This document shows, piece after piece, positions 8,173 through 64,000 of a DNA stretch of 64,000 nucleotides. The stretch spans positions 124,001-188,000 of the forward strand of contig NBIV01000022.1 in NCBI GenBank assembly GCA_003194525.1, given 5' to 3'. This DNA is from Gracilariopsis chorda. Lineage: Eukaryota > Rhodophyta > Florideophyceae > Gracilariales > Gracilariaceae. Position 1 is the first letter of the stretch. Every line of letters begins with the position of its first letter. The notes beneath the pieces are model-generated. The model ran no database searches. It was not told the DNA's origin and saw only the letters and a list, made by a program, of their open reading frames with translations. The translations under genes were made by a program, and so were the position numbers.

Positions 8173-8210
8173 TTTCGGGAGTCTCCCCTACGGGAGAGGC
8201 GCCCTCAGAG

Positions 8211-14847: not shown

Positions 14848-14856
14848 ATACCCGAA

Positions 14857-15573: not shown

Positions 15574-15794
15574 CGTAGATGAAGGAAGCCGAGTAATCGG
15601 AGAAGAAGGCCGCGAAAGCGTACGTGTTGTTGGAAGAACCTCGGAAGAGTTGGTCGCCGATTCGCTAATCGCAGCTAGGTGCTCGTTACCCAGAGTGGGA
15701 TGGAGAACCGGCGAGCCGGACTTACATTTAAGGACCTTTTCCGGTGCTTCCGTCGCAATCGTGGATGTCGTATTCGCACCTCAGGAGGGGGATA

Positions 15795-20655: not shown

Positions 20656-20867
20656 CTTTCGAGCTTGGTCAGATGGAGAAGCGTTCGTCTCATCGGGGGA
20701 ACGTTTGGAAGCCCTGGTGTGGGTGCTAGGAAGGAATCTGTAATGGGTTTGCTTGTTCTGGCGGGGGTTTGTCACGTTTATGGCCGAGTGTTACGTTTGT
20801 TTCAAATACGCGCCATTTTTGTGCCACCGGGTTGATGGTGGCACAATATAAAGGTTAGCACTATTCA

Positions 20868-23950: not shown

Positions 23951-24097
23951 GACAGACCCACGAGTATTCCCGACAGGGACGTGTATTTCTCTGCTTCTGG
24001 CCCTTCGTGCTAGCAGTTGATCTCGCAATGATCTGACCCCGCTCACCGCATGCTCCCTTCGCGTCTTCTCCCTTTCATCGTCTTCCGCTGGTAACTC

Positions 24098-25630
24098 ATG
24101 CCTTTTCTACGCCGCCCCCTTTCGATGGTGTTGCGGAAACACGCTTTTATCAATCCTGTGTTGCCATCCTGTCTGCGAGCAAGTAGAGCATTCCCATCGT
24201 CAACAAAGGCTAATGCATTCCTCCGCAATGCCCGCTTTTGCTCAACGCGCCATCGTCTCGGTCGTCCAGGCTCTGGCAGGGTCGTCGCATCAGCAGCAGT
24301 CGATCTCAAATTTGTGAAAGAAAACCTCCCAGCGGTTCGGCAAAATATTGCTGATCGCGCTGTGGCCGCTGATGCAGACCTCGTTGTCAAGCTCTACGAT
24401 CAGTTTGTCCAGCTCTCTATCAGCGTTGACAACCTTCGTCAAAAGCGTAATGAAAACGCCAAGCTCATGAAATCCGCAGGCAAAATGGCCCCAGAGCAAC
24501 GTCAGAAGTGCATTGCGGAGGGTAAGGAACTGAAATCGGCACTCGCAGACCTTGAAGTCAAACTTGCGGAAGCTGAACAACTCCTCGATGTTGAAGCGTC
24601 AAAAATTCCGAACATGACACATCCAAGTGTTCCAAGAGGCTCTGAAGAAAACTCTGCCTTGCTGAGTGAGTACGGCACGAAGCAAACTTCAGAAACAGCA
24701 GGGATGGAGCTTAAGCCTCACCTGGAATTAGCTACTGCTCTTGACATGGTCGACTTTGAAAATGCGGCGCGAGTAAGCGGACACAAGTTTTACTATATGC
24801 GAAATGCTGGTGCTCTGTTGGAGCTAGCGCTTGTGAACTGGGCGATGACTATTATGGCGAAGAACGGCTTCACATTGATGACTACACCAGACGTTGCTCG
24901 AGAGGAAGTGGTTGCTGGATGTGGCTTCCAGCCTCGAGGGGAATCTAGCCAGGTATACCGCATAGAGGATTCTGATCTTTGCCTCGTTGGTACAGCGGAA
25001 ATCCCATTGGGAGGGTACCATTCTGGTCAGATTCTGGACAAACAACAGTTGCCAATCAAGATGGCCGCGTTTTCTCATTGCTTCCGACGTGAAGTTGGTG
25101 CGGCAGGAAGCACAACAAAAGGGCTATACCGCGTACATCAGTTTTCAAAGGTTGAAATGTTTGTGATTTGTCATCCTGAAGATTCTGACCGGCTGCACGA
25201 GGAACTCCGACTGTTGGAAGAAGAAATGTATAGCTCGTTGGGGTTACATTTCCAAGTGCTGGACATGCCAACGCAAGACCTGGGCAATCCCGCGTACAGA
25301 AAGTACGACATTGAAGCGTGGATGCCGGGTCGTGGATCCTACGGAGAGATTTCTTCGGCGTCCAACTGCACGGATTACCAGGCGCGACGGTTGAATATTC
25401 GTTATCGCGAAAGTCAAGGTGACAACCGTTTTGTACATACATTGAATGCTACTGCGTGCGCTGTACCTAGAATGGTGATTTCTATTCTTGAAACGCATCA
25501 GCAGGAGGACGGATCCATTCGGATTCCTGAAGTTCTGAGACCGTTTATGGGCGGAATGGAGGAAATCAAAGCTGACCATGTTTCACACAAAACACGTGAA
25601 GCAGTATCAGCGACACAAAGGGCAGTTTGA
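24098..25630 (+). CDS. SARS2: Seryl-tRNA synthetase, organellar type
   Basis: This intronless 510-residue protein charges tRNA-Ser with serine (class II). Residues 1-65 are Arg/Ser/Ala-rich without acidic residues, a transit-peptide composition, so it probably acts in plastid, mitochondrion or both. The tRNA-binding coiled-coil arm spans about 70-170. The catalytic core shows TAEIPL (299-304), motif 2 beginning FRREVGAAG at 329 with GLYRVHQFSKVE (342-353), and motif 3 around TACAVPRMVISILE (452-465). The sequence resembles bacterial SerRS rather than the eukaryotic cytosolic enzyme, and all key motifs are present. It starts at the first in-frame ATG after a TATA-like run. Confidence 0.96.
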   Translation: MPFLRRPLSMVLRKHAFINPVLPSCLRASRAFPSSTKANAFLRNARFCSTRHRLGRPGSGRVVASAAVDLKFVKENLPAVRQNIADRAVAADADLVVKLYDQFVQLSISVDNLRQKRNENAKLMKSAGKMAPEQRQKCIAEGKELKSALADLEVKLAEAEQLLDVEASKIPNMTHPSVPRGSEENSALLSEYGTKQTSETAGMELKPHLELATALDMVDFENAARVSGHKFYYMRNAGALLELALVNWAMTIMAKNGFTLMTTPDVAREEVVAGCGFQPRGESSQVYRIEDSDLCLVGTAEIPLGGYHSGQILDKQQLPIKMAAFSHCFRREVGAAGSTTKGLYRVHQFSKVEMFVICHPEDSDRLHEELRLLEEEMYSSLGLHFQVLDMPTQDLGNPAYRKYDIEAWMPGRGSYGEISSASNCTDYQARRLNIRYRESQGDNRFVHTLNATACAVPRMVISILETHQQEDGSIRIPEVLRPFMGGMEEIKADHVSHKTREAVSATQRAV

Positions 25631-39677: not shown

Positions 39678-40061
39678 CTAGTGTCTATCGGACCGCTAAC
39701 CTCATATGAGGTCAAAACAATCAAGTTAACCTTTAATTTTAGTAATTTAGACCGGATTTTTTTCGCTTTCTGTAGTCTGTAGAAGTTATGCAACCTATTT
39801 TTGTATAGCAAAAATTCTAAGCCTCTTTGTTTATGCTCGATGATAAACACAAACATAAGACAACCTGATGGTTTTATAGAGATGTGCTTGAAGAATATGT
39901 CAAATTTACTACAGAGCTTCAGAAAACAGCCTTTTTTGATATCAAAATCGTAGTTTCGATTCAAAAACACCGTTTCTGACGCGTGTATGAAAGGGTCAAA
40001 ACCTTCAAAAAATAATCATTTGGCAACATTACATCCGGGCGGATAGACAAATGTCTACTAG
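39678..40061. repeat. MITE-like repeat, copy 1
   Basis: About 384 bp, starting CTAGTGTCTATCGGACCGC and ending near GGATAGACAAATGTCTACTAG, and highly similar over its length to 47223-47598 in the same orientation (about nine bases in ten by eye). The ends are inverted relatives (CTAGTGTCTATC versus GATAGACA...CTAG). No coding capacity is apparent; it fits a miniature inverted-repeat element whose autonomous partner is not in view. The right end carries a few extra bases forming TAGACAAATGTCTA. Confidence 0.75.
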
Positions 40062-47222: not shown

Positions 47223-47598
47223 CTAGTGTTTATCGGACCGCTGACCTGATATGAGGTCAAAACAATCACCTTTACGTTTAATTTTAGTTACTTTGATTGG
47301 ATTTTTTTGCCTTTTGTAGTCTGTATAAGTTACGCAACATGTTTTTGTATAGCAAAAATTCTAAGTTTCTGTTGTTTGTGCTCGGTGAGAAGCACAAACA
47401 TAAGACAACCAGATGGTTTGATAGAGATGTGCTTGTAAAATATGACTAATTTACTACAGAGCTTCAGAAAACCGGCTTTTTTGATATCAAAAACGTACTT
47501 TTGATTCAAAAACACCGTTCCTGACGCGTGTATGAAAGGTTCAAAACCTTCAAAAAATAATCATTTGGCAACATTACATCCGGGCGGATAGACACTAG
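47223..47598. repeat. MITE-like repeat, copy 2
   Basis: This 376-bp copy runs from CTAGTGTTTATCGGACCGC to GCGGATAGACACTAG and keeps the clearest terminal inverted repeats of the pair. It has the same orientation as copy 1, 7.2 kb away. A long target duplication was not found; a two- or three-base one cannot be excluded. Confidence 0.78.
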
Positions 47599-48081: not shown

Positions 48082-50180
48082 AAAAGAATTTTCTCAGTGT
48101 TCTGAACCTGTCGCGATGAAGATGTTTCGTAAGTACGTCGGCGAGCATGTCTTTTGTCGATATCCATATGGGGGTTATCTGATTACGTGCGGAGTGATGT
48201 TGAAGGTAGTGGTGTCTGATGTCTATGTACTTGCGCCGTTTCGTCCGCGCTTGGTTTTTGGCGATAAAAACCGCCGAATGGTTGTTTATATTTTGAAGTT
48301 TTGGTCAGGTGCACGGATGTCACGCTGAGGCTAGAAGGATTCGAAGCCAGTAGGTGTGTCTCGTTGCGCTTGTGGCTGAGACGCATTCAGCATCTGTGGT
48401 GGAGAGGCTACTACTTTTTGCCGGCTCGATTTCCATGAGATGAAGGTGTTAGACAGAAGATGCATGTTGCCAGTGACTGATTTTCTGTTCGTTGCATTGG
48501 ATAAGTCTGCGTCACTGTAGATCGTAAGCAGTGAGTATTCTGATGCTGGTTGTCGGTTGCAGTTTGTGGCAGTATAGTAGGCCGCGGGTTCGGATACCTT
48601 TGAGGTAGCGAAGCAAGGTCTTAAGGGCTTACAAATGATGAGCGTTGGGGGTATTCATGTGTTGTGCCAATCTTTTTGTACTATAGAAAATATCGGGGCG
48701 TGTGCTGTCTGTGACATAGCGTATGTGTCGAAGACTTTGGTGGCATCGTGTCGCTTGCTCGCTGCTTAGTGACTTGATGGGTTTCTCTTGATCAATGTGT
48801 TTAAATGTGGTGTAGGGTGTATGAAGTGCGTTGTATTCCATCACTTTCGTTTGTGTTAGGATGAATTCAATGGTTTCGGGTTGGGAGATATGGATGCCTT
48901 CGGTTGTTCGTCTTATTTTCCAGTTAGGTAATCGGGTGGGCTGTCCGAAGCCTTTGACCTTGTACTTCTTGAGTAGTTCATGATGCAGGTTGTTGATGTG
49001 GCTTTGGTGGCACGCTAGAATGAGGAAATCATCTATCGTGGTGCGTAGTAGGATGAATCCTGTGTCCAATACATTGGTGTAAAGGCACGGGTCGTCTTCG
49101 AATGGCGTGAAGTGAAGTTTGGTGATAAACTGCTTGAGGCTGTGGTTGTACTAATACGTGGCTGGTGGGCATCCATATATGTTACTTGTCAGCCAGCCAT
49201 AGGTGCTATTGTGTGTATATGTACCATCAAACTGTGGCATTTGTTTTAAATACCCTGGTTTGTCGTGGTTGTATGCTTCATGGAGGGATGTCGATTTGAT
49301 ATCGATATGTTGCATTGGATACTTGAATGCTGCGTGCAGTTCGATGAGAAGTCATTGTGTAGTTCGGTCCGCTGTGTATGTAGTGGTGTCGTTAGGATCG
49401 TAGTGGAGCTCTGTTTTCATGAGGTCGACACGTAAGTTTCATCGTGCTTTACGTTCCGTGAATTTCCCTTCTGCTGAAAATTTATACCTGTAAATCATCA
49501 TTACGCAGATTACGGTTTCTGATAGCGGGCGGAAGTGTGTTGGGAGCCATTGTATGCTACGATGTACATCGAGGTTGTGAATTTCTTGGTTGTGCGCGTC
49601 TTGCCAAATCGATGCATCTGGGTATCTAAGTGCTTGTATCAGGTTGCTGGGGGGCGGTGTGCCGACCTCTATTGATTTTGGTGGTTGTGTTTGGGGTTGA
49701 AGTTTTGTTTTGAAAGCTCGGGTGGTGATGATGTTGGGATCGGTTCGGTTGTGATAGGGATGCAAGTTTTTGGCTCTAATCTGTTGATAGGTGTTCGTCT
49801 GCAGATTTGAGTACGATGATTGTCGTCAGTGATGCATCGTACATATATCTTGCGGGTTGTGCTCTGTTCCCCATTTTTTTCTTCGGGGCGTATATGAGTA
49901 TGTTTCCCGTTCTCCAAAGTTGTATAACCGCTTTAAGGTTGGTTTTGTACCGTGCCACAAATGGTAGGGTGAGTTGTTTGATAATGGCGTGGTGGATAAG
50001 ATTATATTTTAAGATCGTGTCTCTGGTGTTATCTTCCCAGAATTCGGGCCGGAGCTTGGCTGTGGCAAGTGAGGCTCTGACCGATTCCATTATGGTTCGG
50101 TTGAATCATCTGCAACCAAGTTTTCCGATGGTTGATGAGGATTGCGTAGATGATCGTCTGTGTTCTCGGAATGCTAGATA
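48082..50180 (-). mobile_element. Second Ty1/Copia fossil (pol part only)
   Basis: Minus-strand Copia pol segments are recognisable: the integrase C-terminal part at about 49,700-50,180, reverse transcriptase at about 48,980-49,690 (catalytic-loop region with DDFLIL near 49,030), and RNase H at about 48,080-48,900. RNase H ends in the Copia-typical DMLADVLTKHLHRDRF near 48,100-48,150. Gag and LTRs are not seen. It is old, with many breaks. Confidence 0.8.
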
Positions 50181-50390
50181 GAGGTGCTAGATTGCAAATT
50201 TCTTAGGCAAAGGCTCAAAGATACTACGAAAATGATAGATTCTGCTAGTTTCTGGCGCCTGCCAAGTTAAAAAAAATTTTTTTGGAATTCACACTTCCAT
50301 ATCTTACAGAGCCTTGCCTCACCTGCACTGCGCATCGCTAGTTTCAAGTTTGGAGCAAGTTCATTCTCCACTAAAAGCTAGACACAGATC

Positions 50391-50431
50391 TCGAAATGGC
50401 GCTGGCCGCTGCGCGGCCAGCGCTATTTCGA
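50391..50431. repeat. 18-bp near-perfect hairpin
   Basis: Arms TCGAAATGGCGCTGGCCG and CGGCCAGCGCTATTTCGA differ at one base and flank five bases. It lies in an otherwise empty stretch (50,181-50,631) at the left edge of the unusual 50-64 kb region. Confidence 0.82.
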
Positions 50432-50631
50432 GCACCCAACCAAAACTAACATTTTTCTTTCCAACTTTTGAATTTCAAACTTCATACTGCCCTAGTTTGA
50501 CTTTCAAATCATCCTCAGGAACTCATCTGGGCAGCTCTCTCCGTTTTCACACACCCGACGCACCGTGCGTCAGATTCCAATACCACCCATTCCGTCGTCC
50601 TAACAGCCTCAAAGACACTCCTAAAACATCA

Positions 50632-51433
50632 CTAGCCTTCTTCTCCCTCTTCCCTCTTTCCATGCCTCCTCTTCAACTGACTCTTAACCTCCAATCCTTC
50701 TTCGTCCTTCTCCTCCAACCTCCTTTTCACGCTCCCTCTACCTCCAGGAGTAACCGGAGACCCACTCCCGACAGCACCTCCCACCCCACCTTCCCCTCCA
50801 CCTCCATACATCTTGTTCCGCATATCCTCGACTAGATGCACAGCCCTGTCCACCAGTACAAGCCGCTTCTCCAACTCCAAAATTCGTCCTCCCAACTCCT
50901 CATTCTCCTTCCACAGCCTCCCAAGCTCCTCTCCCACACACGCCACAACCCCATCGACGTGCTGCTCTGCCCACACACCAGCCTCCCTCACCCTCCGGCG
51001 CAACTCAGCCACAGCACCCATCGGCACTCCATCCTCTGACTCACTCAGAACCATCCCTCCCAACTCCACGATAACCTCCTCAATACACTCATCCAAACGC
51101 TCCTTAAGCACTCCCCCAGCGCTCCTCAATAGTTTCCTTCACATCGTGGTAGAACCCATCCATTCTTCTCCCTCCACCTCCCCCTACCCCTCCTCCTCGA
51201 CCACCCTCGCCCGCACCTCCCTCCCCACCATCCCCTCCCATCAATCGTCCCAACCCCAAGCTCACTGACCAAAAACTGCAAATAGTAGTCATGGTGAGTG
51301 TGGATGTTCTCAAATGACATGAATCTTCAAGAGTCGTGAATGAATGTTCAAGAGTCGTGAATGAATTTTCAAAAGTCGATAATGAATGTCCCACCTCTTC
51401 ACTTGAACCAACGTCGTCACTGCTTAAATGCAC
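50632..51433 (-). pseudogene. Coiled-coil protein of unknown function, frame not continuous
   Basis: Two overlapping minus-strand frames look like parts of one gene. The upstream part (51,126-51,433) has a seven-residue repeat (SFTTLEH/D) and a long Gly-rich stretch, ending DGFYHDVKETIEERW. The downstream part (50,632-51,129) is a charged coiled coil (ELGRLWKENEELGGRILELE) followed by Gly- and Lys/Glu-rich tails (VKRRLEEKDEEG). The frame changes near 51,127, by an indel in a G run or by an unrecognised small intron. I do not recognise the family. It could belong to the large transposon or be an independent gene. Confidence 0.45.
51324..51386. repeat. Three 21-bp tandem repeats
   Basis: Units are TCTTCAAGAGTCGTGAATGA-like, at 51324, 51345 and 51366. 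They encode the seven-residue SFTTLEH/D-type repeats on the minus strand. Confidence 0.85.
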
Positions 51434-51439
51434 CGCTTA

Positions 51440-52077
51440 TCATTTTCTCATGTGCTCACCACCTTGTCCCTCCCAACACACAAAACAATATTTTGAACCT
51501 CTACACGATAATGCCTTCACCCTCTTCACTCTTCTTCATACATCAAGCACGCCACAATGCATTCATGTATGAAAAGAAACCAGTACTTTCTATATCAACA
51601 GAATGGAAAATAGCGGTATTTGGCTATAACAACGGGATCCTTCACACTCGTACAATCTCCTTCAATTCTCATACATAATCCCATACTCAATTTTACATCC
51701 ATTCGTGTTTCATATGAGCTGCCCCTTCATTCTCCCCTCCAATACACCCATCCCAAGTTTTTTCTCATACTTTTAGACCTTTTTTTATGGAATATAACAA
51801 AGGGAAATCTTTGTAGACATCATCCCTTCATTATTACGCTTCATTCGAAATGAAGCCGCATAAAAAGTAAATCCTCATCGTAGTACACCTCTCCCATTAA
51901 CTATAAACATTAACTATAAAGATCAAAAAGCAATCATCAAATTTAACAAACGAATATCACTAGTTTAACTTATCATTATCAATCGCTTTCATCGTCCTCA
52001 ACTATCGGACCCTCTGCTTCTTTAGGAAACCATTTCACCCTCATCGTCATCCTCCTGTTCATAATCTCCATCAGTGT
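51440..52077. other. AT-rich spacer, no gene seen
   Basis: Only short domain-free frames occur. It separates the coiled-coil frame from the oxygenase remnant and may contain the left limit of the large transposon, which I could not define. Confidence 0.4.
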
Positions 52078-53215
52078 TCATTCCGCTGGTTTCAGTATAT
52101 CCTCATCGTCCTCCTCATCCGACGGGTTCTCACCTTCGGCTTCTTCCATAACTACATCTCTATCGTCAGCTTCATCTCCCCGCTCCTCTTCCCCTCCTCC
52201 CACCTCACATAAATCGCCACGGTCCTTTTCATCATTAAAAAAGGGAGGGCGGAAACCGCTTTGCCTATGCACCGCATCCGGGAGATTGTATCCCTCAGGT
52301 ACAAAGTACATATGGTATCGCATGCAATAGCCTTTCGCTATTGCATCATTTTACCCAGCCCCAGCATGAAATACATCCCCTCTTCCAATGAACACAGAAA
52401 ACGGTGGAACTCTGAACTTCGAACCATCATAGAAGCCGAAAGCTCTTTCAAGTACCCCGTGTCATTGTTAGAGTATGTGACCGTTCAAAAACCCAAATCA
52501 TGAACGCATCCGGTCCCGATGCCATTTCAAAATACCCCGGGTTCACATTTCTCATCCTGTCATTCTCCGTCAAACCCCTGAAATCCGTGTGTAGCACCTG
52601 CCTCGGACAATCCTCTCCAGTACAAAGGATACGGCCACCCATGTGAGGGGCATACATCGTTCCACCTTCAGACAACCCGAGAGCCGCTGCAATCTGACCG
52701 AGCCTTGCATCCAACATGGCTCTCTTTCGAGCAAGAACCGCACCGTTTTCAAGCTCCTAAAATTCTGTCCGCAATCCCTCGTTTGGTTGTGATGAAACGC
52801 CCCACGCCTTGATACCATTCTTAACATCCTTTACCCCTCCTTCATTGATGATCATATTCCAGAAAACACGATTCGCTTCGTTCGTGAGATCCGGTTGCGA
52901 AACAAAGTCGCGTTCGAAGAAGTCCATCAGTTCTCCTATCACATCTTCGTCCATTTGCAGTCCCCTCTTCGAAGCCTCACTCGCCATGCCTTCATCTGTC
53001 CCGAAATTCTCCAGCACACAAAACCCTCTCTCCGACAGCTCCACTCTCTTCTTCGCAAAGTAAACACGAGCCAAGTCCTCTCTCTCAAAAGCGGCCATCC
53101 ATAACGCTTCCTCTTCATTCGATGCCGTTCCTGATGACGGCATCTTCACGCCCAGCACTGCACGTGTCGTAGTACCCATCTTTTTGTGCATTTTGCGCGA
53201 CGCACGCCAGTACAA
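52078..53215 (-). pseudogene. 2-oxoglutarate/Fe(II)-dependent oxygenase remnant
   Basis: The double-stranded beta-helix core is readable. The iron-binding H-x-D lies in QVLHTDF (about 52,580-52,600), followed by ASGPDAFMIWVFERSH. The distal histidine is in PFSVFIGRGDVFHAGAG (about 52,355-52,390), and the co-substrate strand continues in RYHMYFVPEGYNLPDAVH (about 52,260-52,320). An N-terminal region of about 150 residues is helical and of unknown role. The tail is strongly acidic. Enzymes of this fold hydroxylate protein or nucleic-acid bases; TET/JBP act on methylated or plain thymine-type bases. Which class this belongs to cannot be told by eye. The copy is broken in about three places. Confidence 0.72.
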
Positions 53216-53437
53216 GCATGATGAACCATTCGGAAGTCATCAGGTGATAGGCACTCCGCCCGATGGTGCTTCCTCAGATTTATCCTCTGCATCCATGGAT
53301 GGGAATGCTTCACTGCATTTCCACTTGCAGGCCACTCACTGGCAACGAGTATACCAGGTCACCCAAGACATGTCCGCTCCCATAGCCAGCTCTCCTGGCG
53401 TACTTAAGCCAGCTGGAAGCTTGTCAGATTCTTATCG

Positions 53438-54045
53438 TCAAAGCTGCCTGCGGTTTGCTGCTCTCTGCCTCGTCTTCTCATCATCCACAAAGTCCTCCTG
53501 AGCTTCATCCTCGCTTGACTCGAGCACAATGATCTCCTGTGCTGTCAACCACCTCTTCAAATCTCTCCTTTCCATACTACGCAGCACCTCCACCACCTCC
53601 TGCGAGATACCAAAGCCAGGTCGCTTCACACCAGGTGCAGTCGGCTTACGATTCGATCGTCTCTGCCTCTTCACCGGTGGCTCAAAATCAACTGACTCTT
53701 CATCTTCATCTTCGTCCAGGACCTCCACTTTACGCTTCTTGAGATTCGCTTACTTCTTCGAGGCTCCTGGTCAGCGTTTGGAGGCTCCTGAGCAGCTTCT
53801 TCATTCAGACCAAGCAACTCGATCACGTCCACATCGGCCGCAGAGGGAGCAGCAGCAGTAGCATCCTGTCCCTGCATGCCCGACAAAGCGCTGGACAACG
53901 TCCTACGAACCTCTTTCACCTTATTACTCACTCTGGACTCCAGTGAACTGCGTTTCCCTTTCGTATACCACTTCCCCAGACGAGATATGATATACTTTGA
54001 CACAGTCTGGTCAGAATCGCCGATGGTAACCGTGGTATTCATCAC
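53438..54045 (-). pseudogene. Basic/acidic linker protein between ParB-like and oxygenase genes
   Basis: The upstream half has a short helical domain (VSKYIISRLGKWYTKGKR) followed by an Ala-rich acidic stretch. The downstream half is a bipolar low-complexity region (EVLDEDEDEESVDFEPPVK, RQRRSNRKPTAPG) with a helical end, EVLRSMERRDLKRWLTAQE. Basic runs suggest nuclear localisation or DNA contact. It may be the middle of one long protein joining the ParB-like domain to the oxygenase, since all three lie in order on one strand with small gaps. No known family was recognised. Confidence 0.45.
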
Positions 54046-54067
54046 TTCCTGTCATTTTTTTTTTTCT

Positions 54068-55035
54068 TCATGGAACTCCCCAGCTCACTGCAAATGTCAT
54101 ACTTTCTAGAAGCGCAGTCGAAGAAGTACTTTCGGAAATCCTCAAACGGTCCATCTTCACAGTGGCCGCCGACCTCACTCGAACATGCGCCTGTAGACAT
54201 TGGATAGTAAAACGAAACTTATCCCCTGACATTCCAAGCAGAATATCACTAGACACATGAGTGATTCCAATTTGAGGCGTCTCCTGCCACACCACATCGA
54301 AGAACTCTAACAGACCGGGATTACGCGCAAACTTCAGAGCAAGAGCAGAATGGCGATTGAAATGACGTATCTTCCCTTCTTTCCCTTCGTCTCACTGCTC
54401 CACAACACCCCCGTGATTTGGCTTGGTTTAAGCTTCGACAACTCATACCCATCCTGCTCTACGCCATTACGAATAAACGAAACAGCAGTGTGAATCTTAT
54501 CTGCGAAGGACATCACCAGAACATTGGAGCTCAAATCATTCAACGTCTTCCCCAGCCACAACACCTCATTCAATGTCATTCTCCGGCCGTCGTTCCGTTC
54601 CCAAAGCGTGACGTTCAAACCAGCAGTAATCCGTGCCCATCTCGCACCATCCTGCTCGAGGTCCAGTAGAACACTCACTCGATGGAAGCCGTCCACCAAA
54701 ACCACAGGAACAATCAAACGCCCACTCGCATCAATAGCGTCACGAACCGGCACATCCTCCAACAGGGCCACCGCAATCGACCCAAGAGAAGGGAGCCATC
54801 CGAATTTCCTCAGTTTGTTCGAAGTATCTCGAAGATGTTTGTCATTCTTCGAACGAACCATGTTCTTCGGAAATCGAATGTTGTGGATATCGATTACGCA
54901 ATTTTGCTGGTCATAATCATCTCGATTGATTTCTAAGACCCCCAAACTGTTATCCACCTCTTCCGAAGAAACAGCATCACTCATCATATAAAACCCTCTC
55001 CTCCGGATCAAGATCGTTCCTGGAGAGTACAGCAC
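54068..55035 (-). pseudogene. ParB-like (ParB/Srx fold) domain protein
   Basis: The order of motifs follows the ParB N-terminal domain. A strand with IDIHNIRFPKNMVR (the I-x-x-N-x-x-R pattern) comes first, then LRDTSNKLRKFGWLPSLGSI (the S...G...P region). The signature VDGFHRVSVLLDLEQDG matches ParB's DGxxR loop, and a tail with the pattern T-x-x-E-x-L follows. In bacteria ParB binds parS palindromes and uses CTP; related domains are nucleases or are linked to phage methyltransferases. In this gene the HR pair of the loop is intact (about 54,678-54,696). ParB-like domains are rare in eukaryotic nuclear DNA. The product probably binds or cuts DNA. It has at least one break in its C-terminal part. 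Confidence 0.62.
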
Positions 55036-55048
55036 CTCTATGACGTCA

Positions 55049-55810
55049 TCATCGGAGCTTGCTCCGACTTAAGGGCCTCCTCGGTTTCCAGAGCCGCCCG
55101 AGAGCACCTGATGTTCCTCCACCGCTCTGACGGGTTTTCACCGGAGCCTCTCCACCGCTCTCAAGGCTCTTCACCGGCGCTTTGGTCACCAAAATGCTTG
55201 ATGGTGTACCAGCAACAGCGGGAAGGCGCTTGACTTGTCTTGCAGTGGTCCTGGAAGCTGTACTTCTGTGGACAGTCTTCAAATTTGCTCCTGACTGCGG
55301 TGGAACCGACTCATTCCCCTCTCCGCCTTCATTTTTGACACTCATCATCGCAGTGTCCCATGCATATAAACCCGCTGAAACCATCTCCTTCAAAGTTGCG
55401 GGCGGTTCCTCGGGACCCCAAAAACATAAGGGTACTTCTCATCTTGGTGTGACGAAATATTTGTCTTAAAGATAACCACGAAGTCCTCTCCAGGTCTCTG
55501 CGTAGAGGGCAGGGGATGGTTGTGTAGAGAACGACAAAGTCTCGTCCCCGGCCCCCAGCAACCCCACACCGCGCAATTTCGCCTCTCCTACCTTCACCTT
55601 CGCATCACTACTCCCAACTCGTACGAACAGATTGACCTCCGCATCGCCCTTAAGCACCTGACCCGCTCCCCGGATTCCAAAAGCGCCGTCGCGACCGAAT
55701 GTGTTCCCCGGTGGAAATGTGCAGTACTTCAAAGGTCGCGCTTGCGTGTTCTTGGCACCGCTGACGTCGAATGCTCCCGTGATCACGTATGCTTGGTTCC
55801 AAAGAGATGA
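55049..55810 (-). pseudogene. Unrecognised frame between ParB-like gene and the palindrome
   Basis: The upstream part reads as a beta-rich domain (LWNQAYVITGAFDVSGAKN, then KYCTFPPGNTFGRDGAFGI). The downstream part is Lys/Pro/Gly-rich, with an imperfect repeat around EAPVKTRQSGG and KAPVKSLESGG. No family was recognised. It is the first reading unit on the left side of the divergent palindrome and might be the N-terminal part of the ParB-like protein, which follows on the same strand. Confidence 0.4.
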
Positions 55811-55921
55811 ACGTAAGCACTATATATCGTTTTCAAGACGTTTCATGACATCCATTGTCGTCAACGTAGCATCCCTGCAATTCCCCTCCCAATTACTTGC
55901 ATTGCAAAAAGAATTTGATAA

Positions 55922-56076
55922 TTTTGGTCGAGGTCCATGGTCCGAGGTGTCGTGGTGCTCCATCGCGAACACGATGGAGCGCCAGGACGCGAATTTTAAT
56001 TAAAATTCATGCCTGGCGCTCCATCGTTCGCGATGGAGCACCATGACACCTCGGACCACGTCCTCGACCCAAAACG
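55922..56076. repeat. Large palindrome between the divergent gene blocks
   Basis: Two arms of about 75 bp meet at the centre TTTTAATTAAAA near 56,000 and match with only a few mismatches and small gaps. Each arm itself contains the smaller inverted repeat CTCCATCG...CGATGGAG (55958-55965/55972-55979 and 56019-56026/56031-56038), so four copies of one 8-mer alternate in orientation. Reading frames run outward from it on both sides, and the right-hand ATG (56043) lies inside the arm. It could be a bidirectional promoter, a binding site for the ParB-like protein or transposase, or abutting ends of two elements. Confidence 0.88.
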
Positions 56077-57376
56077 AAGAGAAACATAATCCGAAGGAAA
56101 CGGGTTCATTCAAGATGCACGGAACCGGAGAAGAGCTTATTGATGCTTATCTTGCAGTTCGTGATGACTACGCAGCGACGAGGCAAAATGTGGATGAGCC
56201 GAGAAGTTTGAAGCACACCGACTTTGTGGAGTTCGCGGTACAAAGTCGCAACGTTCATGACTCTGCCAAGAAAATGTTTCTCACTCTCATCGGACCGGAT
56301 TACATCTCGTATTGGGACTCCGAGCTCCGTAACATGTCTCTCAGAGGCCCTCCACGTCAACTCTATCTTATGGCAAGAGTGGTGGACGTAAAGGACCGTG
56401 AAAAAGACAGGCGTGTAAGGGACTTTTGGAAGGTTTATTGTAAAAGGGAAGGGCTTAAAGGAATTCCCCGTAACGTGTTGCTATCTGTCTTTTGCAAGTC
56501 CCGTGTTCTGGGAGCAACCAATAAATCTTCCGCTTTCCACACGGATCCTTGCACCGACTTTGAAATGGTCATTGGGTTGTCTATGGTGCAACAGAATGCC
56601 GTGGATAAGAAAGGAAGTGGTAGGAAGAGGAAAAGGGGCATGGCAGCTAAGAAGTTCTCGAAAGTGAGTTTGTCGGACAAGACCCAGAGTCAGAGAGTCG
56701 GGTATGGTGTGCAGCTGGTGACCAGGGCTTGGGATTGTTTCGCCCAATTCCTCGGTTTTCCCAACGTTGAGGTTATGATCTTGCCTTACATTCGACTCGA
56801 CTATATCAGTGTAGTCTTCACCGATATCGCACAACGCTCCATGGGCTTCCAACACAAAGATTGTTCCAAACAGTTTGTGGAGGAGAAGAACGTCACCACA
56901 TAGAAGAAAACGTTACCAAATGGGCATGGAATCTGCCGGACCCAGTGGATACAGCGCTTCGCCTTTGTGCCAAAGAATACCTTGGTGACCTTTCTAATGT
57001 GGTGGTACAAGAGAAACTGTTCGACATCTCTGCTCCCAGCAAATGGGATGCCCTCAAAAGGTTCATCATCACGAGAACGAGACTTTTCCCTCTGCGGTTT
57101 GAGAACTTTAGTGAATCTCTTGTCACTACGGTTCAAGAGGCCATAAAGCCTCTGAAGCTCATTGCATTGCATGGAAGCAATGTCAAAGTACATCAAGCTG
57201 TGAAACCAGAGCCCGCAGAAGACGTTGACATCATTATGGAGCCGGTAGAAACTGGTACGGCTGGTGGTGGGAACGAACGTGCTGAGCGTGTGGAAGGTGG
57301 TGATCAGGGTGAGTTGGAAAGAAGTGGAAGAGATAGAGATGCTAGAGGATGCGGAACGTGGAACTGCGGAACGTGA
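56043..57376 (+). pseudogene. Unrecognised N-terminal region upstream of the DNA methyltransferase
   Basis: Reading begins at the ATG in the palindrome arm. About 285 residues of mixed alpha/beta look (KKMFLTLIGPDYISYWDSEL, VIGLSMVQQN, a basic insert KKGSGRKRKRG) are followed by a second part (ENVTKWAWNLPDPVDTALRL, KWDALKRFIITRTRLFPLRF). That part ends in an acidic linker with many Glu and Asp. No domain was recognised. Because it runs straight into the methyltransferase with little gap, it is probably that protein's N-terminal, perhaps target-recognition, region. It is broken in a few places. Confidence 0.45.
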
Positions 57377-57399
57377 TACTGCACCAAAGGCCACTGAAG

Positions 57400-58498
57400 G
57401 ACTGCAGACAACAGCTTTGTCGGAGAACTTATTGTATTATGTCGAAGGCACGGGGGTCCGTGCACCACCGTACCCTACGACTTTGGATGATGTGATAGCT
57501 TACAAGTATTGTGAGAAGGAGATGTCCCGCAACTTCCGTCTCCACAACTGCAAGTTCGAAAATCTCATCGAAGTTGACGACAACAAGTCTGGCGAAAGCG
57601 AGGTATCTATTGAAGGAAGGGTACAGTTCCTGCTTTCCGATCCGCCATATGGACTCATTCTGAGCTTCGTTTGGAGAACAGCGAACACGATATTCTGACA
57701 GAGAAGGGCATGAGCAGGTCAGCGAGGAGGTCGTCAAAGCTTCTTACGTCCTGGTGGACATATTATACAGTTCTGCTCATGGGATCAGGTACCGTTATGG
57801 CGGGATGGTGCTACGGAAAGTTACCTACATTGATGACTCTGATACGATGCGTTACTCCTTTGTCCTCGACGAACAGCCCCTCCATTTCGTACGGTCTTTA
57901 GATAATACGACGGGTAACGTTGGAGAAGAAGTTGCCGGTTGCACCAGACGACAGAATACGCTGTACATGCTGTTCGTTCTGGAGTTCCTGATGCACAACA
58001 GCACCGGATGGTCAACTATGAGAAACTTCAAATTATGTTGCTTCACGATACCCAGCGTATCATGGAATCGTGGATCAGGTGCCGCCGATGTCAAATAGTG
58101 AGATGATTCATGTGGTCTGTGAAAAAACCCGATGGGAAGTATATGAGGAAGAGGGTGCGACTGGAACAGAAGTGTAGGGCACTGTTGAAAGAGCTGATTT
58201 TGGCAGGTTCAGTCAGCCAGGAGACCTCGTGGTCGACATGTCTGCCGGAACGTTCTCGACAAGCGATGGCGGTGCATGGAACTGCCCAAGCATCGGAAGT
58301 TTGTGGGGTTTGAACCGGACAAAGGCTTGCTTTGAACACGCCAGGCATGCCGCTATTGTTCGCTTCGCTTCCATAATACGGAAAGGACACACGGATATTG
58401 AGAAGAGCCAAGAGCTTCGAAAGATGGCCCATTGTGTTTCCTCTGCATTCCCATTGGGAAGAAGCAGGCACACCATGTTATGGAGGGCTTTCGACTGA
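57400..58498 (+). pseudogene. DNA amino-methyltransferase (beta class), eukaryotic copy
   Basis: Motif IV, FLLSDPPYGL, is at about 57,627-57,656 (DPPY codons 57,639-57,650). A strand typical after it, LRPGGHIIQFCS, is near 57,740-57,775. The S-adenosylmethionine-binding part follows at 58,220-58,262: GDLVVDMSAGTFST, with FVGFEPDK-like sequence after it. Catalytic DPPY before the AdoMet loop is the beta-class order of bacterial and phage N6-adenine and N4-cytosine methylases. Base specificity cannot be read. The copy is interrupted in several places, so activity of this copy is unlikely. Confidence 0.7.
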
Positions 58499-58603
58499 TT
58501 TCCACCGTACCAAATTCTTCCCCCACACCTTGCCGACTTTCTTCTCCACTTTGTGGCAAAGTGAAATTCTAGGGAAGTTGGGAAGGAAGAAAGCTATGGA
58601 TGG

Positions 58604-59274
58604 ATGGCCGAGGGAGCTGCAGGGAAGAATGAATCTGGAGAACATGAAGTCTCTATCGGCAATGGAGGCTGTGCAATATGGTTTCGAGTGGGCAAGTCTA
58701 CTACTCGTCACGAAATGGCTGGTGTTGGAGTGTTTGCAACTCGTCGAATTGCTGCAGGCGAGGTAGTGTGCTATTTCTACGGGACGTTGGTTTATCATGG
58801 CCTTTTGAATCGGAAAGAAGTGCACAAGACCTACGGGGAGGGAGTCATGGGTGTGACGAAGGATCGCTTCCAGAAGTATGCGGTGGAGATAGAAGTCTAC
58901 GGTCAACAGTTCCAATCACTTCCGCATCGAAAACAGCTGACGAATGGGCATGGAAAACAAGCAAACCCCATTTTATGGGTGGTTCCTTCCTTTTTTGTAT
59001 TGCGAGGTATATCAACGATCCAAAGTACGTGGATGGGGATAAATAGTTAGATGCCATGGTGGATGGCCTCGTGAAGAAAAGGGAAGGTAATGTGCGAATG
59101 AAACGGATACCGGGAGTGGGACGAAAACCAGGGGGAATAACGGACTACAAACTTATTAAGATGGAGGCGACAGCCGACATAGAGCAAGGAGAGGAACTTT
59201 TCGCTAGATACGGTGATGTTTATGACTGGCAAACCCATTTCAATGTGGAGGATGGAACGATAGTCATTGATTAG
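58604..59274 (+). pseudogene. SET-domain protein
   Basis: SET motifs appear in order: AGVGVFATRRIAAGEVVCYF (the GxG strand and following, about 58,715-58,780), then ARYINDPKY near 59,000-59,025 (the RFINHS position). The closing part IEQGEELFARYGDVYDW near 59,180-59,235 corresponds to the GEEL..DY block that supplies the catalytic Tyr region. SET proteins transfer methyl groups to lysines, mostly of histones. It follows the methyltransferase by about 100 nt on the same strand and may be its C-terminal domain. It is broken in a few places. Confidence 0.7.
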
Positions 59275-59488
59275 TTTGTTGTTATAAACCTTTGTCCACA
59301 GCTTGGCTAAAGGGCGACGTTTTTTATTTGAACGGATGTGTAGTCCTAACTTAGGAGAACATCACTTTTCAGTAAGGATATAAGATACAAATTGATATAG
59401 ATGTGATACAGAAACGTCCATTTTCGGTACCACGGAGGATTGTATTCTCAAGTTTTCAACAAAAAACAAAGAGTTTTGTGGGCATTGG

Positions 59489-60175
59489 GTGGCGAGATTT
59501 TCCCGGACAACACAGGGCATGCACCATCCCAGAGCGTCACTAGCCACTTGCAAAAGAGGTTTGACCCCAAGAATGGTGCCGAAGGGAAAGAAGCGAGGCC
59601 CGGCAAGGGGTGGTGCGGCAAGTGCGCCTAAGACGCGGCGAAAGGCTATTGAGGAGCGAACCGCGAGTGGAACGAAAGCAAAATCATGTGTTCCCAGGAG
59701 CGGATTATCGGGGAGAAGATCAGGAGAAGGTGCTTCGAAGAGAGGGGGAAGAGGTGGGGCAAAGAACGTCGGATCCGAGCGCACGACGAGTGAGCGCACG
59801 ATGAGTGAGAATTTGAAGGCTGATGCCCATGCCCATGTAGCACGCAAGAGAGATTCCGTTCGGGGACAGCGATCTATGCCTGGGTCTGGTGGTGGGGTGG
59901 AGGTTAAGAAAGGGTCGGTTGCTAGGAGAAGGGAAGAGGTACCAGATCAGGGAGGGTTGAAAGCAAATGCGCGGGTCGAAGACCGAAATAAAGATGAAGA
60001 AACGCCGGAAAGGAAACATATGGAAGAGACATTTGCTTCAAAGAGAGGTGGGGCCCCAAGGGGAAATCAATATGGAGGAGAGGTAAATCTACCTTTGGTA
60101 GAGAGTGATGGGGACGAAGAGGATCACATTGTGAAGGGGAGATGGACGAGAGAGAGAATAAAGGAAGTAGTGTGA
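59489..60175 (+). CDS. Basic, disordered protein of the large transposon
   Basis: About 228 residues, strongly basic and low in hydrophobics, rich in Arg/Lys/Gly/Ser (PKGKKRGPARGGAASAPKTR), with an acidic end (VESDGDEEDHIVKG). The composition suggests a DNA- or RNA-binding disordered region. The next open frame (60,231) continues in similar style, so this may be the N-terminal part of one long protein reaching 61,918. No family was recognised. Confidence 0.4.
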   Translation: MARFSRTTQGMHHPRASLATCKRGLTPRMVPKGKKRGPARGGAASAPKTRRKAIEERTASGTKAKSCVPRSGLSGRRSGEGASKRGGRGGAKNVGSERTTSERTMSENLKADAHAHVARKRDSVRGQRSMPGSGGGVEVKKGSVARRREEVPDQGGLKANARVEDRNKDEETPERKHMEETFASKRGGAPRGNQYGGEVNLPLVESDGDEEDHIVKGRWTRERIKEVV

Positions 60176-60230
60176 CGCCGCTCTGATTTAAAGGAAACGC
60201 GAGAAGTGGAAGAAGTGGTCAGAGTGATGG

Positions 60231-60958
60231 ATGGAATACAGGAAGCATCAAAAAGCGGAGAACGTACGAGCACCCCGGTACGGGCACGAAAAAGTGCAAA
60301 TGGCTCAAGACTTAGAAAGTGATAAAGGAAGCATAACGCCGCGGACTCCGGAAGGAATGCGAGAGAGGAAACGAAGTGTTCATCGGTCGCCAAGTGAGCC
60401 TGCTGAGGAGCGACGGCTGCCTGTCAATATTTTGGAAGATGCAGGGAATGAAGACATCGGTGTGATATCTCGATCTTCGTTAGTTGAGAGGGTCAATATG
60501 TTGAAGGCAGAACTCGAGCAGATCAAAGGAGACCACCGCAGCCTAAAGATGTCGCTGAAGCTGACGCAAGAGGAACTGAAGAGGATGAGAGAACAGATGA
60601 GCGAGAAGAATTTGCTGATAGATAGCGTACGGGAAGGGATGAAGGTGAGACGAGGGAAAAAAAGGGATCTGAAGGTGAAAAGGAATTGCGATGGCGTAGG
60701 AAGTATGTGGTTGATGTGCAAGAGGGTTTTTATGGGTTTGCCAGGGTCATATATGGTAGGTTGTTGTACTATGCGAAGGTGGAGGTATCGGAGCTTTGTT
60801 TTACTTCGGAGGGTGTGGAAAGGAACTGGACGAATCGATGCGAAGTATTGGGGAAGGGAAAAGAGGGGAGTGTGTTTGTTATGGGAGGAAAGGAGATTGC
60901 ACCTCGATGTCCATTTGAGATTGCGTCTGAGATGAGGTCGTACACGCCTTTGCCGTGA
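60231..60958 (+). pseudogene. Coiled-coil segment, unknown family
   Basis: A charged region leads into a heptad-patterned coiled coil (SSLVERVNMLKAELEQIKGD, LKLTQEELKRMREQM) at about 60,470-60,640. Past it the protein-like reading lies in another frame (YVVDVQEGFYGFARVIYGRL), so a break or a small intron lies between. It sits between the basic region and the unknown C-terminal domain. Confidence 0.4.
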
Positions 60959-60976
60959 GGAGGAAGTAATGAACTA

Positions 60977-61918
60977 TTGAAGTACTTGGTTGGCGTTGAG
61001 ATTGAGGGGGAGAGATGGGAGTCGATTCATGAAGCGGGTAGGAAGGATCAATGCGTGCGGGAGGTTGTTGCAGACAGGTGTTTGAGGCAACGTATGAAGC
61101 AGAAGTTGAGTGATGTGATTGGGGTTTGGAAGCGTACGGCACGGGAAAAAATGTTTTCGTTGCTTCGATATGACTTGATAGCCAGACGTGTGAGACCGCG
61201 AGAGGGGACCGAGCTAGACATTGAGTTGAAGAAACAGTTAGGGAACGTAAAGACGAAGTTCATGGAAGATGGGGAGGCGAAGAGTGGTAGGTTATGTTCC
61301 TGGAAAATGAAAAAAATCGAAGATCTTACGTATTCTGGATTTCAGGTTGCTGGGCGGCTGAGAGAGTTTAGTGAAGGGGACATGTACTTCAAGAACGGGG
61401 CTGCGGTGGAATTGTTGGAAGAATTCATGGGATATGAGATGGGAACGGAAAGGGAGGGAAAGTTGGAGTACGTTGATGGGACAGTGATGCATTTGGCTCG
61501 TTTGGATGCGTGGACCGGATGTGTTTTGACGGCAATGGACACAGATGTGGGGCGTGGAGGAAGACGACCGTTGTTATTTTCTACGTTTTACGGTGAGTAT
61601 CTTCCGCTCGCGGTAGAGAATATACTTGGTGTGGCGTGGGAGAGGGTGAGAGAGCTACATCATGAAGAATTGGAGAATGAAGGTTGCGATGAGGGTGACC
61701 CACGTTGTATAGCTGGCAATGGGGATAGAGAAATGACGGTAGCGCTGTGGATACCTTCGAAGCGGAGGATATACTTGGCCGTGAAGGATGAATACTTTTT
61801 GGAACATATGACGAAACGGCTGGGAGGGGTGCTGGACTGTTATGTTGCTGCGTGTCGGCCAGAAGATGTGTGGATGAATAGGTTAGTGAAAGAGAGTCGA
61901 GATGTTAGGAGAGGTTAG
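60977..61918 (+). CDS. Unrecognised protein of about 310 residues
   Basis: This is an uninterrupted frame with a helical first half (MKQKLSDVIGVWKRTAREKM) and a mixed second half (LDAWTGCVLTAMDTD, TVALWIPSKRRIYLAVKDEY). Composition and length look like a true protein. Its neighbours suggest a structural or DNA-handling part of the transposon. I recognise no motif. It converges on the transposase gene about 95 nt away. Confidence 0.5.
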   Translation: MKYLVGVEIEGERWESIHEAGRKDQCVREVVADRCLRQRMKQKLSDVIGVWKRTAREKMFSLLRYDLIARRVRPREGTELDIELKKQLGNVKTKFMEDGEAKSGRLCSWKMKKIEDLTYSGFQVAGRLREFSEGDMYFKNGAAVELLEEFMGYEMGTEREGKLEYVDGTVMHLARLDAWTGCVLTAMDTDVGRGGRRPLLFSTFYGEYLPLAVENILGVAWERVRELHHEELENEGCDEGDPRCIAGNGDREMTVALWIPSKRRIYLAVKDEYFLEHMTKRLGGVLDCYVAACRPEDVWMNRLVKESRDVRRG

Positions 61919-62012
61919 GCGACGGATCATGTCGAGGCGCAGTGGGAGGAAGGTCTGGGAGGTTATGAAGAACAAGTTGAAGAAGAATAGTGTTACTGGT
62001 GGAACGGGTGGT

Positions 62013-64000
62013 TTACTGATGTGTTATAGATTGTGGGGCGTAAGGCTTTGAAGAGGTGTCACGATAGAATCGGTTGATGTAGAAACGATGGAAGCGCCAC
62101 TGAAGACGAGGAGTGAATGGCGGCGCGGGGTAGTTTTCTCGAATGACGTGGACTGCACCTAGAATGGAGGTGGAGGGAATGAGGCCGAACCAAGGAGATA
62201 CGTTGTCGTCGGTGGAAGGTTTGGAGATGGGAACTGGATCAGTGGTGTGGTCCCGCTGGTCATCGGTGGACCACTGAGGGCAGACGCAGTTGAGGATGAT
62301 ATCGACAATGTCGCGAGGTGGTACGAGTTCAAGGAATTGTACGAAAGCGAATTCCTTTGTAATGGGGGTGGAAGAGCATGAAGAGGGGGAAGGTAGTTTG
62401 AAGCAAACTAGGGCGATGAGCTTGGAGACCCATACAGTGGGTGTGGATGGAGAGGAGAAGTTGGTTCCTGCAACAAGGATATGGGAGAACTTTGGTGATC
62501 TGGGAGGTCCGAATGATGGAACGGCGAAGATGCACTGGAGGAGAGGGACGGAGGGTTTTTGCAGGACGATTTTGTTTCGTTCTTGGTTGTAATTGTGTAG
62601 TGTTGGGATGTAACCACCGACGACGTATGCGGATTTGACGAAGGTGAGACGAGTTGGACGGAGGTTGTTGGGTGAGGTATTTAGCTTGAGATATTCGATG
62701 GAAAGGGAGACGAAGGAATGAAGTGTGGTGTGACCTAGTTGTGAGATGATTGAGAGCGTGTCTGAGGAGAAGAGTTCTTGAAGAAATTTTGGACTTGCGT
62801 TGGGGGTGGATGCAAGGTACTTTGCGGCTGTGAAGATGTCGTAGAAGGAAAGATGTTTTCCGTCACGTACGAAGGAGGGTTTGCGTGGTTGCGGTTGAGT
62901 TTGAGGTCGAGCATGGGAGGATAAGGAAGGGTCTGCGGAAAGTGGATTCCAGTCCTTGAAGAGATTGGAGCGGTCTATAGCACGGATGTTTTCTGTATGG
63001 GCGGTGGCTCTTAGCTTGGAAGTTTTGGAGTAATGTGATTTGAAGAGGACGTGGGCGTGCTCGAAGATGCCTGTGTTGTTGAAGTGGAGACCCCCTTATC
63101 GGCGTATGTCTTCGACGATGTGGTCGAGGAGATGGAACTTGAGGGTTCCCAGGTGGGAGGAGTGGTAGGGTCCGAGAATGGATGCGGCTGTGACTTTGAA
63201 GGATCTGATGTGTTTTTCGAGAGATATGAGGGAGGTGTCTGTTCATTCGGGGGAGGAGTTGTATTGCATAGCGGAGAGAAGGAGGTCTGTGTACTTGGTG
63301 AAGACAGAAGTGATGGGGGAGGAGTCAGTTTCTTTGCAGCATCTGTCGAAGAAGGCGCCGATGAAGGGGAAGACCATGTCAAGGGTGCGGTAATCCTTTG
63401 CTTCCAGCATTCCTCGTAAGCCTTTTGTGGTGAAGAAGCCGTTGAGGGCTTGGGAGTTGTCGGTTGTGGAGAAGTCGATGTGGAGGCCGGGTGCGGGGGA
63501 GTCGTCTTCGATGGCGGTGAGGATGGAGTTGGAGTGTTTGAGGATGGAGGTGCGGATGGAATGGAAGGAACGTTTCGTGTTGTTGGGGCCGACTGTGGTG
63601 AAGAGTGATTCGGAGTGGAGTCGTTCGATGGCGGTGGCTTTGATGAGCTTTGAGACGCCGAGGTGGAAGTTGTGAAGGGGTTCGAAGGCGAAGATGTTGT
63701 AAGAGGAGAGAAGGGGAGTGATGTTGAAAATGGCGTAAGATTCGAAGAGAAAGGGATATTTGCGAGGGAGAGGGACTGCAGGGCTCTGGTTGCCTGTACC
63801 TTTTTGGTGCGAGCAACTTTTGGCTTGCAGGCGAACTGGGCTTCATCGGACTGGCGAAGGAGAGCGGCGTTTTCTCTGCTTTTGTGTCGAGTCTGGGATT
63901 GTGTGCGGAAGTGGATGGGGTTTGTGTTGAGGGAGAGGTGTTCGCGGGGGACGGTACATCTGGGGCAGGGGTGCTGTGGTCGTGTTCCGTGCGAGATGGC
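62013..64000 (-). pseudogene. Plavaka/CACTA-like transposase, C-terminal part (N-terminus beyond window)
   Basis: Read on the minus strand from the right edge: a CPRCTVPREHL zinc-binding block (about 63,950), then FAFEPLHNFHLGVSKLIKAT (about 63,620-63,680), the Tnp2/Plavaka-type D/E-P-x-H-N block. Next come KFHLLDHIVEDIRR and FEHAHVLFKSHYSKT (about 63,020-63,130), and the family-type C-terminus SILGAVHVIRENY ... FHRFYINRFYRD (about 62,060-62,160). The stop is at 62013. The reading moves between frames a few times, and one good stretch has no Met, so simple ORF lists miss it. Plus-strand frames at 63,051-63,675 are its shadows. It is not an LTR element. Confidence 0.72.

What the first reader, a model, noticed from the sequence alone, without database searches (positions are those of the whole stretch)
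52078..64000. A DNA transposon carrying its own DNA- and histone-modifying gene set
Within 12 kb sit a Plavaka/CACTA-like transposase, a DNA amino-methyltransferase, a SET domain, a 2OG-Fe(II) oxygenase and a ParB-like domain, decayed to a similar degree and arranged as two divergent blocks. One reading is that the element marks its own DNA and surrounding nucleosomes to escape or exploit host silencing. Transposase and motif calls are from sequence; unity of the element and function are inference.
Basis: partly seen in the sequence, partly recalled or inferred. Interest (0 to 1): 0.88.

Follow-up and report, generated by a model that had tools for sequence, protein, structure and literature searches.

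The report
Jumping gene carrying chromatin-marking enzymes
A family of large DNA transposons in a fungus-like genome carries, besides its transposase, a fused DNA-methylating and histone-methylating enzyme and a second protein joining a ParB-like DNA-binding fold to a predicted oxygenase, so it may write and edit chemical marks on its own DNA.

Summary
The finding holds, with corrections. It is a decayed copy of a multi-copy Plavaka (CACTA-clade) transposon, larger than reported: window 50155 to C22:189819 (15,665 bp), with matching terminal inverted repeats and AT target duplication. Ten of 16 copies with both ends read have matching 2-bp duplications; one insertion has exact empty sites elsewhere (180/180). 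The "separate" domains are two divergent fused proteins: a ~1060-aa beta-class DNA amino-methyltransferase (fold nearest CcrM) joined to SET, and a ~1400-aa ParB-fold protein with a conserved HxD...H...R (2OG-type) C-terminus. An 821-aa unknown and a small coiled-coil protein complete the set. Of 56 methyltransferase-SET loci found, 46 show transposase, right end or ParB gene in the expected place and orientation (mirror control 0). A sibling family has intact frames; dN/dS is about 0.2 for cargo and transposase alike. Both fused proteins have homologues elsewhere, one pair apparently on one contig. No function was measured; the 2OG fold was not confirmed. ParB-methyltransferase proteins are reported in algal transposons and TET-type oxygenases in fungal Plavaka, so this is a new variant of a known kind. 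Interest 0.72.

The parts
50153..50154 (.). left copy of the 2-bp target-site duplication (AT); partner AT directly follows the right end at C22:189819, outside the window
50155..50177 (+). left terminal inverted repeat CGTC(T/G)GTGTTCTCGGAATGCTAG; the right one (reverse complement CGTCGGTGTTCTCGTTATGCTAG) ends at C22:189819, outside the window
50155..50500 (.). subterminal region with CTAG-centred repeats (GCTAGTTT-like) at 50174, 50187, 50245, 50338, 50378, 50492; the right end has five in its last 400 bp
50653..51138 (-). remnant of small coiled-coil gene (276 codons open in C53)
51982..55672 (-). decayed ParB-2OG fusion gene (1417 codons open in C550)
54370..55056 (-). ParB-like domain, DGFHR motif
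52250..53080 (-). predicted 2OG-Fe(II) oxygenase-like C-terminal region (HTD near 52590); approximate limits; fold not confirmed
55673..56099 (.). divergent intergenic region between the two fusion genes; holds an inverted repeat 55938-55970/56026-56058
56100..59271 (+). decayed amino-methyltransferase-SET fusion gene (1065-codon open frame at C53, C332, C745, C241; only C53 was read in full)
57580..58420 (+). N6_N4_Mtase domain, permuted (DPPY near 57640, AdoMet motif near 58240); approximate limits
58690..59250 (+). SET domain; approximate limits
59528..61897 (+). decayed gene of an 821-aa protein of unknown fold (coiled coil)
62022..64000 (-). Plavaka transposase gene, 3' part; continues outside the window to position 65302

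Best explanation
The region is a decayed copy of a self-contained Plavaka DNA transposon of 15.7 kb (the sibling copy C53, without ParB-2OG, is 11.85 kb) whose cargo is a two-protein marking system encoded head to head. SHOWN: one element with defined ends; the fused proteins; their folds or motifs (2OG by motif only); co-conservation under purifying selection. INFERRED: the methyltransferase half writes an amino-methyl mark (6mA more likely than 4mC) on the element's DNA, the SET half methylates a lysine of nearby histones (or of the transposase), and the ParB-2OG protein, loading on element DNA through its ParB fold, oxidises a mark (its own 6mA, host 5mC, or a histone/protein residue). The net effect would be to keep element chromatin open for transcription and transposition, or to gate transposition at its CTAG-rich ends. 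Confidence: unity of the element 0.97; DNA amino-methyltransferase plus SET in one polypeptide 0.97; ParB fold 0.9; 2OG oxygenase 0.75; self-marking to counter silencing 0.5.
For: Ends: 26 of 74 rows of the left-end search, the window's own included, cover at least bases 7-3142 of 3146 (40 of 190 candidates scored); 40 of 40 rows of the right-end search reach base 416-420 of 420 (40 of 139 candidates scored). Matching 2-bp duplications in 10 of 16 copies with both ends read. Joined C53 flanks found uninterrupted, two at 180/180. Linkage: 46 of 56 methyltransferase loci have transposase/right end downstream or ParB upstream, mirror control 0 and 0. Domains. Selection: dN/dS 0.17-0.29 in 12 of 13 comparisons, 0.46 in one; wrong-frame control, methyltransferase only, 1.67. 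Probably recent activity: four stop-free 1065-codon methyltransferase-SET frames of nearly equal score, four 1160-codon transposase frames. Second source: P0003 (methyltransferase-SET) and P0056 (ParB-2OG) are both listed as '4 contigs, longest 20528', i.e. very likely one contig. Fungal precedent for 6mA erasure by a dioxygenase (CcTet): passages of PMC13297926 and section 23 of PMC12730594.
Against: No activity, methylation or expression data. The 2OG region has no significant family or PDB sequence match and the model is poor there. Some copies lack the ParB-2OG gene (C29, C51; C53), so it is not in every copy, although those may be deletion derivatives. No copy read here has all five frames open: C53 lacks ParB-2OG, C550 has a shortened methyltransferase-SET frame (701 codons; that part not read), C332 has a broken ParB-2OG. 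Five of 16 copies have non-matching duplications and one is ambiguous. Ten of 56 methyltransferase loci showed no linked part (the searches score only best candidates). Terminal bases differ from both published Plavaka lineages. One homologue, P0054, is labelled by its source as from a Bacteroidota MAG, though it matches only the methyltransferase half.
Confidence: 0.6

Rival explanations
1. Transposition regulator: the methyltransferase marks sites in the ends (for example the CTAG repeats) and methylation state gates transposase binding or couples excision to replication, as Dam does for bacterial IS10/Tn10 (recalled); SET and 2OG tune the transposase itself rather than chromatin.
For: CTAG is about 9- to 17-fold over-represented in the terminal 250-400 bp of window and C53 and ranks first (window) or second (C53) among the 4-mers occurring at least 4 times there. 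Of 11 other left ends given, 6 were matched by the end pattern and have 5-6 CTAG per 400 bp against 0.33-0.67 further in; 5 other right ends have 2-5 against 0-0.29.
Against: CACTA-clade elements commonly have subterminal repeats as transposase-binding sites without any methylase (recalled); the methyltransferase's target is unknown; AAAA outranks CTAG in C53; CTAG was singled out after looking at 12 palindromes.
Confidence: 0.25
2. Cargo without function for the element: captured genes carried as passengers or serving the host.
For: Copies without ParB-2OG exist; [quoted passage not shown]
Against: Purifying selection on cargo equal to that on the transposase; recurrent gene order; the two fusion genes appear linked on one contig in another source.
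Confidence: 0.15
3. Chance neighbours: several decayed repeats nested or abutted.
For: The window is repeat-rich.
Against: Shared ends, target duplications, empty sites and the same order in many copies.
Confidence: 0.02

Closest known systems
TET/JBP-carrying Plavaka transposons of Agaricales (Kojima 2025, PMC12730594; abstract, sections 4, 21, 23, 26 and passages read)
   Same: Plavaka-family transposase, short duplications, an oxygenase-type cargo gene, fungal host
   Different: PE-type oxygenases, the type it assigns to Plavaka, have HxE; here HxD, in a ParB fusion, with no Tet_JBP match in this genome (control silent). Published termini are TGT..ACA or CATCA..TGATG; here CGTCGG..CCGACG. 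[quoted passage not shown] here a methyltransferase-SET accompanies the oxygenase-like protein.
ParB-like plus DNA methyltransferase accessory protein of Sola1-1_Ec32 (Ectocarpus; PMC12477816, passages read), said there to resemble proteins of green and red algal transposons (its refs Iyer 2011 and Petroll 2025, neither held)
   Same: Transposon-encoded ParB fold and N4C/N6A methyltransferase, proposed there to mark the transposon's own DNA
   Different: There one 1104-aa protein in a Sola1 element, no SET or 2OG mentioned in the passage; here two proteins, methyltransferase-SET and ParB-2OG, in a Plavaka element
SET-carrying HarbingerS and MuDR transposons of Phytophthora (cited in PMC12730594, section 4)
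   Same: Transposon-encoded SET histone methyltransferase
   Different: No fused DNA methyltransferase mentioned in the passage read; other superfamilies
Bdelloid N4CMT (PMC8885841, passages read)
   Different: Host gene, not transposon cargo; chromodomain reader instead of SET writer
CcrM / MboIIA / M.BceJIV DNA N6-adenine methyltransferases
   Different: Bacterial, no SET (recalled), sequence identity 19-22% in those alignments

Membership tests
Plavaka DNA transposon | PF18759 transposase | tested here: met
   window 3.3e-18; C53 2.7e-21
Plavaka DNA transposon | defined ends with 2-3 bp target duplication | tested here: met
   10 of 16 copies match, 1 ambiguous, 5 do not
PlavakaA or PlavakaB sub-lineage (Kojima 2025) | termini TGT..ACA or CATCA..TGATG | tested here: not met
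   termini CGTCGG..CCGACG; transposase phylogeny not done
Beta-class DNA amino-methyltransferase | PF01555, DPP[YF] before the AdoMet motif, fold | tested here: met
   by a loose pattern 53 of 53 homologues have the permuted order and 50 of 53 DPP
SET-domain lysine methyltransferase | PF00856 above cut-off and conserved Asn and Tyr | tested here: met
   C53 8.8e-5, P0003 2.1e-6, P0022 5.2e-7; N973 and Y1038 invariant in the 21 aligned sequences; the loop reads IND.. instead of the canonical NHS (recalled)
ParB/sulfiredoxin fold | fold | tested here: met
ParB/sulfiredoxin fold | DGxHR-type motif | tested here: met
   8 of 9 homologues and C550 (DGRNR in P0059)
ParB clamp | CTP binding and DNA clamping | not testable with these tools
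   -
2OG-Fe(II) oxygenase | HxD...H...R | tested here: met
   8 of 8 complete homologues plus C550 (the ninth, P0055, is cut off); HxD to H 71-78 residues, H to R 16-20
2OG-Fe(II) oxygenase | double-stranded beta-helix fold or family profile match | tested here: inconclusive
   no significant Pfam/NCBIfam/PHROG/PDB-sequence match; pLDDT mostly under 50 there
PE-type TET/JBP of Plavaka | HxE motif | tested here: not met
   HxD in 9 of 9 homologues and C550
Algal ParB-methyltransferase accessory protein | ParB and methyltransferase in one polypeptide | tested here: not met
   separate genes here; metagenomic P0046 may have both: hhalign places the ParB core in register but weakly (E 0.006, probability 6%)

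The most novel reading that the evidence does not exclude
A transposon-borne writer-eraser system: one polypeptide writes a DNA amino-methyl mark and a histone lysine mark together, a second one, ParB-loaded onto CTAG-rich transposon ends, oxidatively removes a mark, and the balance decides whether the element is silent, transcribed or mobile; the ParB fold and the fused methyltransferase-SET form an ancient cassette shared by transposons of fungi, red algae and other eukaryotes.
Probability: 0.25. Interest if true: 0.92.

Novelty: new variant of a known kind. Interest (0 to 1): 0.72.

Why it matters
Mobile DNA is usually seen as the target of epigenetic marking by the host. Here a transposon family with intact frames at several loci carries its own candidate DNA methylase and histone methylase in one protein, and a ParB-type protein with an oxygenase signature. 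That makes the question whether transposons write their own chromatin state directly testable (long-read methylation calls, one recombinant protein), and gives a candidate enzyme for amino-methyl DNA marks on transposons of a fungal-type genome.

Tried and rejected
Rejected: chance association of separate repeats. Disfavoured: canonical Tet_JBP cargo (PF12851 gave no match in the genome, but its control was silent, so weak; HxD instead of PE-type HxE). Against this, P0054 is labelled as from a Bacteroidota MAG; it matches the methyltransferase half only.

Led nowhere: single-frame Pfam scans of the window copy; NCBIfam and PHROG scans of ParB, 2OG, the 821-aa and the coiled-coil protein (only weak PHROG matches, E 0.008 or worse, to families of unknown function); PDB sequence searches of ParB-2OG (best E 0.57); a strict SET motif pattern that missed known members (loosened: 42 of 53). 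A Foldseek pdb job was never accepted. Twelve palindromes were looked at before CTAG; CTAG was noticed after the fact and then ranked against the 4-6-mers occurring at least four times at the ends.

Literature: ten searches. In that library the only paper holding both 'Plavaka' and 'SET domain' is PMC12730594. Petroll 2025, Iyer 2014 and Iyer 2011 are not held, so the fusion may already be described there.

Full report
WHAT IS THERE. The window lies in an unnamed 91.3-Mb assembly (C22:124001-188000); that the host is a mushroom-type fungus is inference from its many Plavaka elements. A 10-kb piece of the finding matched seven other contigs, longest matches at 93-99% (only 7 of 231 candidates scored). 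Aligning these copies showed a common left end at window 50155 and a common right end at C22:189819. Searching with the left 3.1 kb gave 74 rows, of which 26, the window's own included, span nearly all of it; searching with the last 420 bp gave 40 rows, all ending within 4 bases of the same place. The terminal inverted repeat is CGTCGGTGTTCTCGGAATGCTAG with variations. C628 shares the window's left flank, so it is an allelic or duplicated copy, not an independent insertion.

TARGET SITES. I read both ends of 16 copies, 15 of the window's family and C53 of a sibling family. Ten have the same 2 bp outside each end: C22 AT, C29 TT, C53 AT, C263 TA, C150 CA, C39 AG, C274 TA, C1 TA, C3 TA, C151 AT (in C263 and C39 one end carries substitutions, placed by eye). 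C51 fits (TG) only if two bases were lost. C347, C10, C32, C382 and C6 do not match. Chance agreement would be about 1 in 16 per copy if bases were even. The C53 flanks joined with a single AT occur uninterrupted in 40 rows, two identical over 180 of 180 bases. For the window insertion, six of nine rows are diverged relatives (69-74%) continuous across the joined point; the other three are the window's and C628's own flanks.

GENES. The sibling copy C53, 11,851 bp between its ends, carries four intact frames: small coiled-coil protein (276 codons, minus), methyltransferase-SET (1065 codons, plus), unknown protein (821 codons, plus), Plavaka transposase (1160 codons, minus). Pfam: N6_N4_Mtase 3.6e-18, SET 8.8e-5 (cut-off passed), Plavaka 2.7e-21; nothing for the other two. 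C550 supplies the fifth gene, an open 1417-codon frame joining the ParB-like and 2OG-like regions. All five map, broken, in the window: coiled coil 51138-50653, ParB-2OG 55672-51982, methyltransferase-SET 56100-59271, 821-aa gene 59528-61897, transposase 65302-62022. ParB-2OG and methyltransferase-SET lie head to head. No copy read here has all five frames open.

LINKAGE. The 62 methyltransferase rows (56 of 349 candidates scored) merge into 56 loci. 37 have the transposase or the right end in the expected place and strand downstream, 31 the ParB gene upstream and divergent, 46 at least one; ten none. Flipping each locus gave 0 and 0. The searches score only best candidates, so these are lower bounds.

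SELECTION AND AGE. Between C53/C550 and copies of the window's family, dN/dS is 0.17-0.29 in 12 of 13 comparisons covering methyltransferase, SET, 821-aa protein, ParB, 2OG and transposase pieces, and 0.46 for one transposase piece (C51), against 1.67 in a wrong-frame control on the methyltransferase. These include decayed copies, so the true values are probably lower. Four stop-free 1065-codon frames with almost equal scores suggest recent movement of the sibling family; the window's copy is broken.

DISTRIBUTION. 53 homologues of methyltransferase-SET were found (region 480-1060 searched), one from Chondrus crispus by its source's name and one, P0054, matching the methyltransferase half only, labelled Bacteroidota MAG; all 53 carry PF01555 and 25 of 53 also PF00856 in the precomputed annotation; a loose motif test finds SET motifs in 42 of 53. 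Nine homologues of ParB-2OG were found (in one search only the 7999 candidates sharing most words were scored). P0003 and P0056 carry the same contig count and longest-contig length (4; 20,528), which I read as one contig; I could not fetch it. In the prokaryote genomes and viral contigs returned, only the methyltransferase domain matched; ParB-2OG was not found there.

ENDS. CTAG is concentrated at both ends: 11 of 27 (window) and 10 of 24 (C53) lie in the terminal 400 bp on each side. This may be transposase-binding subterminal repeats, a methylation target, or both.

COMPARISON. Fungal transposons with TET/JBP oxygenases, Plavaka included, are known (PMC12730594; abstract, sections 4, 21, 23, 26 and passages read); SET genes in oomycete transposons are cited there. 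[quoted passage not shown] So the kind is known; the combination of methyltransferase-SET and ParB-2OG in a Plavaka element was not seen in what I could search or read, and three likely papers are not held. Hence 'new variant of a known kind'.

VERDICT. Unity and architecture are established; catalytic competence is likely for the methyltransferase, probable for SET, open for 2OG; biological role is inference.

Noticed in passing
window 5048-16094: Young-looking Ty3/gypsy-type retrotransposon with chromodomain: 300-nt repeats 99% alike at 5048-5347 and 15795-16094, reverse transcriptase, RNase H and integrase zinc-binding matches at 8955-11420, Chromo at 12208-13719.
   Followed up: partly
window 18919-20790: Tc5-type DDE_1 transposase frame of 624 aa without stops.
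   Followed up: no
window 24095-25627: Seryl-tRNA synthetase gene, probably host.
   Followed up: no
window 39678-40049 and 47223-47594: Pair of repeats 85-92% alike, 7.5 kb apart, LTR-like.
   Followed up: no
C29 and C51 copies (L013, L015): Both lack window 50815-56002 and share a junction with a second copy of the 56003-56093 repeat, so they probably descend from one rearranged ancestor.
   Followed up: partly
C150 and C347 right flanks (L107, L111): Identical flanking sequence beyond the right end of two copies: segmental duplication or assembly duplicate.
   Followed up: no
L009:6696-7418: DDE_Tnp_4 (PF13359, E 2.9e-23) frame about 2.9 kb beyond the element's right end.
   Followed up: no
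P0046, residues 29-81: A metagenomic methyltransferase-SET homologue with a ParB-like N-terminus (DGTHR), hinting that ParB and methyltransferase-SET were once one protein (weak score).
   Followed up: partly
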